Of a DNA stretch of 64,000 nucleotides, positions 26,411-63,254 are shown piece after piece. This DNA is from Opisthorchis felineus. Its lineage: Eukaryota > Platyhelminthes > Trematoda > Opisthorchiida > Opisthorchiidae. Below the pieces are notes generated by a model. It did not search any database, had not been told where the DNA came from, and saw only the letters and a program-made list of their open reading frames with translations. Location: NCBI GenBank assembly GCA_004794785.1, contig SJOL01003815.1, positions 36,291-100,290 of the forward strand, given 5' to 3'. A program made the position numbers and the translations under genes. Positions within the stretch are counted from its first letter, which is position 1. Every line of letters starts with the position of its first letter.

Positions 26411-26629
26411 TACAGAAGTATATTCGTAAGGCACTACTCATAAGGTTACTGAAAATTCTTCGACAGCCCACGACCGGTTTCGCCCTTCTTGGGGCTCATC
26501 AGGTAGGCGCAGTCTCCAAGTTTCCGTCAACATTACAAACGAGAGATTCCGCTGGGTTCCAGGTGAGTCTCTCGCAGAACCAAATTTGTTTGCAACTGAG
26601 TGTATTTCACCAATTTTGTACAGAAGTAT
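26411..26629 (-). mobile_element. Family A hammerhead element flanked by an 11-bp direct repeat
   Basis: The direct repeat TACAGAAGTAT occurs at 26411-26421 and 26619-26629 and brackets a 197-base insert, as expected for a target-site duplication. Reading the minus strand, the insert has an arm that begins near GAAATACACTC, carries CGAGAGACTCACC and CTCTCGTTTG, then TTGACGGAAAC, an intact hammerhead (26508-26466) and the end segment CAGTAACCTTATGAGTAG. No protein is encoded, so it would be mobilised by another element. Boundaries are inferred from the direct repeat. Confidence 0.7.
26466..26508 (-). ncRNA. Hammerhead ribozyme, intact core (family A)
   Basis: On the minus strand, stem I is GCCTAC (26508-26503) pairing with GTGGGC (26471-26466), six pairs including one G-U. 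The core CTGATGA is at 26502-26496. Stem II, GCCCCAAGAAGGGC (26495-26482), has four pairs and a six-base loop. GAAA is at 26481-26478. Stem III is the self-complementary ACCGGT with no loop, and the cleavage triplet is GTC, cutting between 26472 and 26471. All conserved hammerhead positions are present. Such a short stem III is known in other animal hammerheads and tends to require dimerisation of two RNAs. Self-cleavage is inferred, not shown. Confidence 0.8.
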
Positions 26630-26639
26630 TCTTCAATAC

Positions 26640-29600
26640 CTGTTGGACAGTAATGTGAGTTTTAAAAGGACCTGCTCATAGAAATCGAAAGGGAACAGCT
26701 GTTGTGATGGTTGATCAGCAAACGATCAACTTCTTCACACTGATCACTCGTCGCTAAATAGCCAAGTTTTAATAAATCTAAGCAGTGCAAAATCCGCTCG
26801 AGATGATCTTTCGTCTGAATTTTGCGATTACATGTTTCTCCCAATGAATTTATCCTGCCAGACCATGCATTGCCATTACCTGCAGTCCTTTTTAGGGTGG
26901 TTGGTCAGCGAACAAATCATTGTTTGGCCGATATGTTCGACCTGACTTTCACCCTATATTGGGGTATAGAAGACTACGGATAGTGAAGGCTTTGTGTGTC
27001 AAATTTGGTTCCTAGGACTCTTCATATTGAAAACTTACGCTACCTATAAACAACACGACGCCTGTCATCATCTTGGTTTATTGTTCGTAGTCATATTCCT
27101 AACGATCTATGAGAGATCCAGGCACTTTGTTTTAAAATTGACCTGTTTATGCGACGTCAAAGCTGTACATGTCTGACCATGGAAATTACTTGATGGTATG
27201 AAAAATGCATTTACCGTTTTTAGGTCAGGCATACATGAACTGAACAAAACTGCTAGTTAAATGCCAGAGTAAAATGAAGCGGCTGTCCTTTGAAGATCCA
27301 CATAAAATGGAGAGTGTAGTAAACTTAGAAGTATCGTTGATATTTTTTACAGAAAACTTTGACAAGGTGGTGTGATTTTCATTTTGCAAAAAGAGCCATA
27401 CTAACCAATAACTAATAACGAAAACTCAAAGACTCCAAACCTACGCAGTCGTGTCCACAAGCGGCTCAGATTACAAGCCACCTGGGTATGGAAAGTATTC
27501 TTATTGCTCGACAGGGCAGTGCTGACAAAAGGTTACCGATGGTCTGTAGTTCGAAATAATGGAAGTTACCACCAACAGATAATTCTTCATACGGTAAGGA
27601 AACACTTCTTTAAACCTTGCAAGCTTTCGCAACACAAGCAAACTGGGACCGACCATGCTATTCCACAGTCATTGCAAGCGCAAATGTGACGAGTTGTTTA
27701 TGGTTCGAACTGGATCAAAATCACCAAGTGTGAGTTGAAAACGCTTAGCTCAAAGGACTTCTTGGTGGCAGTCAGTCAGAGCACAAGCATACATGACTGA
27801 TGATCCATTTGTAATCAAAGTTTACGTGTGGTTGGCTGGCATCCGTTTCCCGAAACGCAGGTTACATCGAACTAAGCTGAATAATCACCAAGCACAGAAG
27901 ACTATGCCACACGCAATCTGCGCTGGGTCGTGTCTGAAAGCAGCTGAAAGCCCTGTACATGACATAAAACCGAGGTAGTAATATCGCAGGGTAAATAGGA
28001 GGGAGCAGTTCTAAAGTCAACTGATGACCAATAATCGTCGAACCAAGTGCGGGTGAACAAACACGTGAAACGCATAGTGTATGCGGTGAGTTGCTCGTAC
28101 GGTTTATAAAGCAGCAACTTTGTTTAGTTAGTGCTAGACGGTAATTATCCTGGTCTGTAGAACGATGTCCACAGAAAGTTAATTTTAACGCCCCTGTAAG
28201 CCTAACACATTGGAATCTCGAGAATGTTCTGGCAGGTTATTTACAGTTGTATTCCTGAAATACACCTAAAACACAAAACAATATAAGATCGACTACTATA
28301 CGAGGTATTGCAGTTTAGTATAATACAGAACAATCTTTCAGGTAAGGTACTAATGGAATACGGAGGGACAATAAAACAACTTCGGGTAGCGAGCCATTTT
28401 ATGCCCTCATAGGCTTGTGCGGTTTTATCTACCCTGGGGATAATGAGGGCTCACTACCAACCATAAAATATCACGTATATGATAATAATGACAACCGTTT
28501 GAACGAGTATACACCGACACAAAGCAAACGTATGGCATACCGCTGCTCTGCTGGGCACTAGTGAGGACAAGTCGACTGGAAACTAGTCTTTAATCAAACA
28601 GACCACACACAAGGCGAGCTACCGAATTCCTCCGTGAAAACAACCAACTTTTTCAGTCAGGAACTAGAAGCAGCCTTCTTCATTTACCGGATCACTACTT
28701 CAAATTACGTCTCATCTGCAACTGAACCACGTTTTGTGTAGTAACATCCATTTACAAATGTCCGTTCCCGGTGATTCGAACCATGGCCACTCTACTGCCA
28801 GGCTTCCAAAGAAGTTCAGGTCAGATTATCAATTCCGAAGAATTTCTGTCGTCAAAACTCGACCTATACACGTTTCATTATCTTGGCTGTTTCCACGAAG
28901 AGCGCCTTACCAAAAATTGGAAATGCCTCGATCAGTTGCATAGTCTATATGCTCCACTACATATTCACAACTTTTCCGCCATGACGGATCACACAAAATA
29001 AATGGCTCGTTAAGTGCGTATCGGAAGCTTGGATGTAAGGAATCCCTAGTCTCTGTGGGCGAAGAGAATGGAAAAAAAGTCTGTTCGAGTGTTGTTGGTT
29101 ATAAGAAGATTCATTTTGTTGGGGGGGGGGTAGTTTTTGCCATATGGTAGTCTTACCCATTGAAGGAATAATGTTCACAGTGGAAATGGGCCGTTTTAAG
29201 TACTCAAAGTCACGGTGTCAGGCAACGGACAATGAAAAAATCTTCGTCTTGGTACTCCAAAGGATTACTTTTTTTAGCTAGAGTAGAGGCGCTTGAACGT
29301 GCCACATTCTGATGTTATTTTCAAAGGGATACAAAAAAGTGGATGAAGTAGGGAATGCTGTCTTCCTCATGGAAGTATCACGAAGGCAGCGAATCAAATC
29401 GGGTGTTTCGCCCACCAAAACATCTTGGTGGTGGTTAATATAGTCACACTTCATCGAATTACTAGTGGAACTGAAGGGAAGTAATGTTCTCTGGTCATGT
29501 GTTTTAGTTTGCTTTTCTGATTAACAGGACGGTTTTCATTTATCGGCCTAAAGCAGGCTGTTCATAAGAGTGAATAGAACAGGTCCAAAAACCACTTTTG

Positions 29601-62960: not shown

Positions 62961-62963
62961 CCG

Positions 62964-63254
62964 ACTCATAAGGTTGCTGAAAGCTCTTCAACAGCCCATG
63001 ACCGGTTTCGTCTTTCAATTGAAGAAGAACATCATAAATGAGAGATTCTGCTGGGTTGCAGGTGAGTCTCTCGTGGAAAACAAATTAGTGTGCAGATGAG
63101 TGCGTAAGTCGAATTTCGTGCAAGTTGGGTTCAAGTATAACGTTAGTTTGACGGAAACTCGGTGACTGTGCCTGCCTGATGAGCTTCAAAAAGGGCGAAA
63201 CCGGTCGTGGGCTGCTGAAGAGTTCTCAGCAACCTTATGAGTAGTGTATTACTT
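62964..63254 (+). mobile_element. Family A element, most complete copy with terminal inverted repeats
   Basis: The left terminus, CTCATAAGGTTGCTGAAAGC through GACCGGTTTCG (62965-63010), is the inverse of the right terminus CGAAACCGGTC through CAACCTTATGAG (63196-63242), about 47 bases with few mismatches. The left arm keeps only the GAAACCGGTC half of the ribozyme, while the right arm has the whole motif. Between them is the non-coding body (GAGAGATTCTGCTGGGTTGC, GTGAGTCTCTCGTGG, CGAATTTCGTG, TTTGACGGAAAC). No open frame and no clear target-site duplication. It looks like a non-autonomous element. Confidence 0.7.
63170..63212 (+). ncRNA. Hammerhead ribozyme, intact core (family A)
   Basis: Stem I is GCCTGC (63170-63175) with GTGGGC (63207-63212), six pairs including two G-U. 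The core CTGATGA is at 63176-63182. Stem II pairs GCTT (63183-63186) with GGGC (63193-63196) around a CAAAAA loop. GAAA is at 63197-63200. Stem III is the loopless palindrome ACCGGT (63200-63205), with cleavage after C63206 of the GTC triplet. All core positions are conserved. Two G-U pairs weaken stem II compared with the copy at 26.5 kb. Activity is inferred from the fold only. Confidence 0.78.

What the first reader, a model, noticed from the sequence alone, without database searches (positions are those of the whole stretch)
26411..63254. A repeat family carrying a type I hammerhead ribozyme with a loopless, self-complementary stem III
About eleven copies share the order GCCTAC, CTGATGA, GCCC-loop-GGGC, GAAA, CCGGTC, GTGGGC. 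Two copies (26466-26508 minus, 63170-63212 plus) have every conserved hammerhead position and a six-pair stem I. Stem III is ACCGGT, palindromic with no loop, so two RNA molecules or two adjacent copies would have to pair to cleave. Hammerheads with short stem III are known from animal repeats, but I do not recall this sequence family as described.
Basis: partly seen in the sequence, partly recalled or inferred. Interest (0 to 1): 0.9.

Follow-up and report, generated by a model that had tools for sequence, protein, structure and literature searches.

The report
Hammerhead-ribozyme repeat inserted like Penelope
A short, non-coding repeat scattered through a liver-fluke genome carries a self-cutting RNA motif of a kind already known from newts and Penelope retroelements, and the scars of its insertions suggest that Penelope-type enzymes copy it into new places, which would help settle who mobilises such elements.

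Summary
That ribozyme design is not new: newt-type and Penelope-like-element (PLE) hammerheads also have a tiny palindromic stem III and are reported to act as dimers. The repeat is more interesting. Genome-wide there are 3,828 exact cores and 604 tandem pairs about 293-309 nt apart, as in metazoan retrozymes. Dispersed copies are head-to-head composites (39 with both pieces of 30 nt or more; 0 tail-to-tail). Each looks like one insertion: target-site duplications in 22 of 39 (1 of 435 controls), no shared junctions, and two fixed sense-3' ends, A and B, usually one of each. One array (A-piece about 2.74 kb, 9 units) plus an inverted B-piece sits inside a 12-bp duplication. PLEs in the same genome show the same head-to-head form, with one long and one short end where both could be read. 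Best reading: a non-autonomous retrozyme with a dimeric hammerhead, copied from circular or multimeric RNA by PLE enzymes priming from both DNA ends. Published reviews call the mobiliser undeduced and PLEs candidates; this is anatomical evidence. Cleavage and circles are untested.

The parts
26466..26508 (-). Intact type I hammerhead: stem I GCCTAC/GTGGGC, core CTGATGA, stem II GCCC-CAAGAA-GGGC, GAAA, palindromic stem III ACCGGT, C17; scissile bond 26472|26471
   Evidence: RF02275 sub-threshold match 37.2 bits
63170..63212 (+). Second intact hammerhead (stem II weaker, GCTT/GGGC with two G-U); scissile bond 63206|63207
   Evidence: RF02275 26.3 bits
26418..26622 (.). One head-to-head insertion (BLAST limits): A-piece 26418-26535 (minus, unit 28-145) and B-piece 26529-26622 (plus, unit 221 to about 307)
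26411..26421 (.). Left target-site duplication TACAGAAGTAT
   Evidence: read; TSD search
26619..26629 (.). Right target-site duplication TACAGAAGTAT
   Evidence: read; TSD search
48466..48764 (.). Head-to-head insertion: B-piece 48466-48544 (minus) and A-piece 48548-48764 (plus); hammerhead with broken core (CTGATAA); near-match duplication 48454-48468 / 48759-48773 (15 bp, 2 mismatches)
62895..63252 (.). Head-to-head pair: 62895-63016 (minus, unit 75-202) and 63028-63252 (plus A-piece with the intact hammerhead); no convincing TSD
59218..59769 (.). Decayed pieces in both orientations
24071..24471 (-). Decayed piece longer than one unit (332 nt, 75% identity) with inverted fragments
12177..12277 (+). 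Decayed copy
19124..19499 (+). Decayed copy, profile only
29635..29821 (-). Decayed copy, profile only
33223..33737 (.). Decayed pieces in both orientations
38684..38862 (-). Decayed copy
58107..58236 (-). Decayed copy, profile only

Best explanation
This is a short non-coding retroelement of the metazoan retrozyme kind in what looks like an opisthorchiid liver fluke. Tandem units of about 293-309 nt are transcribed; two hammerheads in one multimeric RNA pair through their palindromic stem III (ACCGGU with ACCGGU) and cut, giving unit-length RNA that can be closed into a circle (inferred). A Penelope-like reverse transcriptase/GIY-YIG endonuclease makes a staggered target cut and both DNA 3' ends prime on the RNA, one at start site A, some 40-50 nt 3' of the hammerhead cut, the other at start site B further on. 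The two cDNAs run upstream past the ribozyme for a variable distance, sometimes through several units, and are joined head to head, leaving an inverted two-piece insertion inside a duplication of usually 9-15 bp. Shown here: the motif, the tandem arrays, the head-to-head form, the duplications, the two fixed ends, a like form in local PLEs. Inferred: cleavage, circles, and which enzyme does it.
For: Tandem arrays: 604 direct hammerhead pairs at 279-309 spacing, reversed control 0; on C14, 11 listed cores with a period of 307, 8 of 8 units compared identical. Unit is non-coding (longest open run 66 codons), 46.6% GC, folds at -102.7 kcal/mol, z -3.7, 0 of 100 shuffles as good. Neighbouring opposite pieces: 44 head-to-head, 0 tail-to-tail; with both pieces of 30 nt or more 39 to 0. 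One spacer range genome-wide: 14 places against 0. TSD score of 9 or more in 23 of 44 against 0 of 345 mismatched flank pairs, and in the stricter set 22 of 39 (16 exact, 9-15 bp; 6 of 13-18 bp with 1-2 mismatches) against 1 of 435. Sense-3' ends: 72 at A, 44 at B, 20 elsewhere (136); sense-5' ends 20 of 134 in the same windows, as chance predicts. Stricter set: 27 AB, 1 AA, 1 BB, 10 unclear. Junctions: 0 of 946 pairs coincide within 5 nt. 29 of 138 pieces exceed one unit, and 99 of 138 cross the cleavage site. C358: A-piece of 2,744 nt (8.9 units; ends and flanks read, the middle known only from the pattern listing) plus inverted B-piece inside the duplication AAAACCTATCAA. PLEs in the same genome: among the 150 best places (3,759 candidates), close pairs are 7 head-to-head, 3 direct, 0 tail-to-tail; C1522, C954 and C1165 each have one long and one short end, and L072 looks alike, with duplications read by eye at C1522 and C1165. 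Head-to-head form with 8-10 bp TSD is published for PLEs (PMC3846280, passages), and a PLE protein cuts and extends both strands, starting inside the RNA (PMC11167929, passages).
Against: No sequence homology between the 307-nt unit and the PLE loci read here (only short chance matches, plus fragments of a separate copy of the repeat in L071), so the partner is not identified by a shared tail. 17 of 39 composites lack a convincing duplication, and of 47 single pieces with clean flanks only 4 have one. Of six arrays whose ends were read, only one (C358) has a duplication; three of the other five have Ns at an end. Arrays could also grow by unequal exchange. No peak of 5' ends at the cleavage site (4 of 134 within 3 nt), so cut linear RNA is not the usual template. 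Loci were picked for carrying the hammerhead, which favours A-pieces. Covariation is modest. The interiors of the PLE pairs were not read, and one read pair of six (C1111) was unclear, one (C1743) uninformative. The published Anolis PLE study found that its hammerhead's activity was not needed for insertion in vitro.
Confidence: 0.75

Rival explanations
1. A DNA transposon or MITE: ends A and B, which share ATGAGT..GTRTTWCG, are terminal inverted repeats, and the hammerhead is a passenger.
For: Both outer ends are fixed, related in sequence and mostly one of each; duplications are present.
Against: Central junction differs in every composite (0 of 946 pairs coincide); exact duplications vary from 9 to 15 bp; pieces run through several 307-nt units.
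Confidence: 0.06
2. The same element, but moved by a LINE (CR1, RTE or similar) rather than a PLE; the inversions are L1-type twin priming.
For: Variable 5' ends, variable TSDs and 5' inversions also occur with LINEs (recalled). No PLE tail homology was found. LINE families of this genome were not surveyed.
Against: Inversion is common here (88 of 138 pieces lie in head-to-head pairs); both outer ends are start-like; local PLEs show a like asymmetric form; PLEs share the hammerhead.
Confidence: 0.15
3. An internally deleted, non-autonomous PLE whose pLTR with hammerhead is what remains, rather than a separate retrozyme lineage.
For: Hammerhead, insertion form and distance from hammerhead cut to the near RT start (median 47 nt here; 41 nt in the local PLE, counted) are alike.
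Against: No similarity to the two PLE families read; tandem units of about 300 nt fit retrozymes (PMC7229834, parts 1-2 of 6 read). Other PLE families were not surveyed.
Confidence: 0.3
4. Ordinary satellite DNA whose hammerhead is a relic; dispersed pieces come from recombination of extrachromosomal circles.
For: Arrays of identical units exist.
Against: Duplications around head-to-head composites and fixed 3' ends are marks of target-primed retrotransposition.
Confidence: 0.05

Closest known systems
Metazoan non-LTR retrozymes (Cervera and de la Pena 2020, PMC7229834: parts 1-2 of 6 and passages read)
   Same: Type I hammerhead, non-coding tandem units of 170-400 nt, GC below 50%, thousands of copies, coexistence with PLEs, duplications larger than in plant retrozymes
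   Different: Head-to-head two-piece dispersed copies with two fixed RT starts are not mentioned in the parts read; circular RNA not tested here
Newt/axolotl satellite hammerheads (passages of PMC7229834)
   Same: One-pair helix III with palindromic tetraloop, dimeric action
   Different: Host; the repeat sequences were not compared
Penelope-like elements and their minimal hammerheads (PMC3846280 and PMC11167929, passages read; Cervera and de la Pena 2014 and Lunse et al. 2017 known only from citations and recall, not held)
   Same: Head-to-head inverted form, 8-10 bp TSD, optional tail on one end, hammerhead with tiny helix III near the RT start
   Different: No ORF; six-pair stem I and ACCGGU instead of the local PLE's three-pair inner stem I and ACGU; two start sites 144/163 nt apart round the unit
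Schistosoma Sm-alpha and W-elements (PMC8490949, passages read)
   Same: Trematode repeats with hammerheads; W-element ones have an extremely short stem III
   Different: No sequence comparison was made; described as SINE-like or satellite-like

Membership tests
Type I hammerhead ribozyme | Conserved core CUGANGA...GAAA...UH with stems I and II | tested here: met
   RF00163 over cut-off at 16 genome places; 7 of the 8 loci cut from the list are this family
Type I hammerhead ribozyme | Rfam gathering score for the copies in the window | tested here: not met
   no match at gathering; RF02275 37.2 bits against 52
Type I hammerhead ribozyme | Base-pair covariation | tested here: inconclusive
   6 pairs changed on both sides, shuffles 2.2, slid controls up to 6 (53 rows, 52 distinct; one search had listed 76 distinct copies)
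Type I hammerhead ribozyme | Self-cleavage | not testable with these tools
   needs RNA
Metazoan retrozyme | Tandem non-coding units of 170-400 nt with a type I hammerhead | tested here: met
   604 pairs; longest open run 66 codons, 46.6% GC
Metazoan retrozyme | Circular and linear unit-length RNA | not testable with these tools
   no RNA data held
Metazoan retrozyme | Loop 1 - loop 2 tertiary contacts of canonical type I hammerheads | not tested
   no contact model was applied
Dimeric hammerhead | Cleavage as a dimer through a weak helix III | not testable with these tools
   palindrome ACCGGU present; computed duplex -8.3 kcal/mol
Penelope-like element | ORF with RT and GIY-YIG endonuclease | tested here: not met
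   unit non-coding; it is inserted like a PLE but is not an autonomous PLE
Penelope-like element | Head-to-head inverted insertion with short TSD | tested here: met
   44 to 0, TSD in 23 of 44 against 0 of 345; 39 to 0, 22 of 39 against 1 of 435
DNA transposon / MITE | Fixed TSD length and shared internal structure | tested here: not met
   exact TSDs 9-15 bp, 0 of 946 junction pairs shared

The most novel reading that the evidence does not exclude
Hammerhead plus the adjacent start site is a loading module for a dimeric Penelope reverse transcriptase. One small RNA circle carries two start sites, one for each protomer; each DNA strand of the target primes at one of them, so an insertion has one A and one B end, and repeated passage round the circle inserts whole tandem arrays in one step. 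Retrozymes would then be parasites of PLEs that mimic their hammerhead-linked start module.
Probability: 0.4. Interest if true: 0.75.

Novelty: new variant of a known kind. Interest (0 to 1): 0.6.

Why it matters
[quoted passage not shown] Here the insertions themselves carry evidence: target duplications, two start sites and head-to-head joining, like local PLEs. It gives a concrete, testable model for how hammerhead-bearing RNA re-enters genomes, and many natural insertions from which to read the mechanism.

Tried and rejected
MITE and plain satellite readings were tested and rejected (see rivals). L1-type twin priming does not fit the one composite worked through by hand (L004: outer end of the inverted piece at unit 300, start of the other piece at unit 195). 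A shared tail between the unit and the PLE loci was looked for and not found. A 5'-end peak at the cleavage site was looked for and not found. The species could not be named from COX1 (no match); one PLE protein query points to Opisthorchiidae (Clonorchis sinensis 77%, Opisthorchis viverrini 72-85% over 31-77% of the query). An endless reading frame through tandem PLE units was considered and not found at C860 and C795 (stops in all three forward frames). Paper searches listed nothing whose title or abstract start describes this family or a head-to-head form of retrozymes; the library lacks Cervera and de la Pena 2014 and Lunse et al. 2017, which may list such motifs from flukes.

Caveats on counts: loci L009-L038 were picked by similarity to unit 28-137 and L039-L068 by the hammerhead core, so A-pieces are over-represented; in the core-picked loci alone there are 24 A, 11 B and 8 other 3' ends, against 4 A, 4 B and 35 other 5' ends. 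Six of the 44 composites rest on a second piece under 30 nt (L032, L039, L045, L049, L051, L067), and L045 was paired with the wrong piece; therefore gave 26 AB, 2 AA, 2 BB and 14 unclear, and the recount with both pieces of 30 nt or more gives 39 composites, 27 AB, 1 AA, 1 BB and 10 unclear. If composites are seen only when they hold an A-piece, 1 AA against 27 AB is still unlikely for pA of 0.5 or more (P 0.0002 or less), but not if A were rare. The lower TSD threshold of 8 gives 26 of 44 against 5 of 345 and 11 of 435 controls in the recount. Nine neighbouring pairs are direct: four are array units, four are repeated or nested BLAST pieces, one is in L049. Dropped before the end counts: array loci L052-L062, L009 (the same place as a window copy), repeated BLAST pieces, and ends against N or locus edges.
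Full report
OBSERVATION. The window lies in a 630-Mb draft genome (G000, contig C504). A strict core scan finds these two and no others in the window. Eleven family loci (3,321 bp) are present, mostly decayed. Rfam gives no match at gathering score in the window; RF02275 (HH9) matches below threshold. RF00163 matches 21 places in the genome, 16 over its cut-off, with only 74 of 115,518 candidates scored, and 7 of the 8 loci cut from these are this family.

ORGANISM. A reverse-transcriptase piece of a PLE from the genome matches Clonorchis sinensis (77%) and Opisthorchis viverrini (72-85%, partial) best among named hits. 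I infer an opisthorchiid liver fluke; the species is not shown.

UNIT. On C14 hammerheads repeat every 307 bp (11 cores listed; 8 of 8 compared units identical). Genome-wide there are 3,828 exact cores and 604 direct pairs at a spacing of 279-309. The places listed show subfamilies with periods of 293, 307 and 309 nt among others. The unit has 46.6% GC, no open run above 66 codons and folds better than all 100 shuffles. In the predicted fold the hammerhead's stem I continues outwards into CATAAGGTTG/CAACCTTATG.

RIBOZYME. Across 52 distinct aligned copies (one search had listed 76) stems I, II and the outer stem are 93.2% paired; 6 of 19 pairs have a double change, for example CG to UA in stem II in three copies. 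The shuffle control gives 2.2, but partners slid by one column reach 6, so support is modest, as expected of decaying copies. Stem III ACCGGU is its own complement; the computed duplex is -8.3 kcal/mol. When any five bases are allowed in the stem III position, 4,049 places match; of the roughly 100 listed I counted by eye about 18 that differ from CCGGT, one of which (ATCGAT) is again a palindrome. The two intact copies of this window each sit alone in their insertion, so they could only pair in trans; the tandem arrays are the likely sources of self-cutting RNA (inference).

INSERTION ANATOMY. Mapping 138 pieces onto the circular unit shows that the sense-3' ends fall at A (unit 124-152; 72) or B (290-307 and 1-8; 44), 116 of 136, while the 5' ends are spread (20 of 134 in the same windows). 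End A lies a median of 47 nt 3' of the hammerhead cut (quartiles 39 and 51, n = 72). Neighbouring opposite pieces are head-to-head in 44 cases and tail-to-tail in none; with both pieces of 30 nt or more, 39 to none, with no direct neighbours. Genome-wide with one fixed spacer range the count is 14 places to 0. Duplications with score 9 or more flank 23 of 44 composites against 0 of 345 control pairings of flanks from different composites, and 22 of 39 against 1 of 435 in the recount, 16 of them exact and 9-15 bp long. No two junctions agree (0 of 946 pairs). Recounted composites are 27 AB, 1 AA, 1 BB and 10 with an unclear end. In the window, 26418-26622 is such an insertion, with the 11-bp duplication TACAGAAGTAT at 26411-26421 and 26619-26629.

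ARRAYS. At C358 an A-piece measured at 2,744 nt (8.9 units) abuts an inverted B-piece of 94 nt, and the whole is flanked by AAAACCTATCAA on both sides. The interior was not fetched; its hammerheads are listed every 307 nt. This is what several rounds of reverse transcription on a circle, or one run on a multimeric RNA, would leave. C447 has the same layout but an N at the other flank. None of the other five arrays examined showed a duplication; C357, C447 and C498 have Ns at an end, C441 and C477 do not.

PENELOPE LINK. The genome holds many PLEs: 150 best GIY-YIG-region matches scored and listed of 3,759 candidates, three of them in open frames of 858 codons. Their close pairs (under 8 kb) are 7 head-to-head, 3 direct and 0 tail-to-tail. 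I read the outer ends of six of the seven head-to-head pairs (C909's pair was not read), plus L072. C1522, C954 and C1165 each have one long-tail and one short end. L072 has a short end and an inverted long-tail piece upstream, but the joint was not checked. C795 has a short end opposite a tandem continuation; C1743 has duplicated flanks and is uninformative; C1111 is unclear. C1522 is flanked by TTTGTTACAT and C1165, which lies inside a copy of our repeat, by ACTACTCAT (read by eye). The PLE hammerhead has a three-pair inner stem I and, in 9 of 10 copies, palindromic ACGU; the short end lies 41 nt 3' of its cut (counted). The published PLE form, head-to-head with 8-10 bp duplications and an optional tail on one end, is alike (PMC3846280, passages), and an Anolis PLE protein cuts and extends both target strands with internal RT starts, although its hammerhead's activity was not needed for insertion in vitro (PMC11167929, passages).

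READING. Retrozymes are known; dimeric hammerheads with a palindromic helix III are known; the PLE insertion form is known. That a retrozyme-like repeat is inserted in the PLE form, with two start sites mostly used one per end, I did not find described in the passages and listings seen; the closest statements are that the mobiliser cannot be deduced from the repeats and that PLEs are likely candidates. Two central papers on PLE hammerheads were not available, so priority for the motif itself cannot be judged.

Noticed in passing
L002:1501-1545 (G000:C968:495001-495045): A different hammerhead in the same genome with an 8-nt palindromic loopless stem III (ACTCGAGT); copy number not obtained because the search did not complete.
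   Followed up: partly
L100/L101 (G000:C1165:1771567-1774518): A head-to-head PLE pair lying in a copy of the hammerhead repeat, flanked by a 9-bp duplication ACTACTCAT (read by eye; interior not read).
   Followed up: partly
G000:C733:253801, C1498:563186, C366:115326, C1588:308377: PLE matches reported within open frames of 2,254 to 5,323 codons; the tandem PLE spacing on C860 is 2,781 bp (3 x 927), but stops close the frame between units at C860, so the giant frames are unexplained.
   Followed up: partly
unit 211-225: A mild excess of sense-5' ends (18 of 134 in this 15-nt bin), just 5' of the GAGAGATTC...GAGTCTCTC hairpin: an RNA 5' end, an RT stop or an alignment effect.
   Followed up: no
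L074 (G000:C1396): The PLE locus also holds, on the opposite strand, an open stretch that looks like an LTR-type RT/RNase H (by eye).
   Followed up: no
window 48482-48599: Rfam MIR9555 sub-threshold match (36.3 bits against 119) lies across the head-to-head junction of the 48466-48764 insertion; probably a chance hit on the inverted repeat.
   Followed up: no
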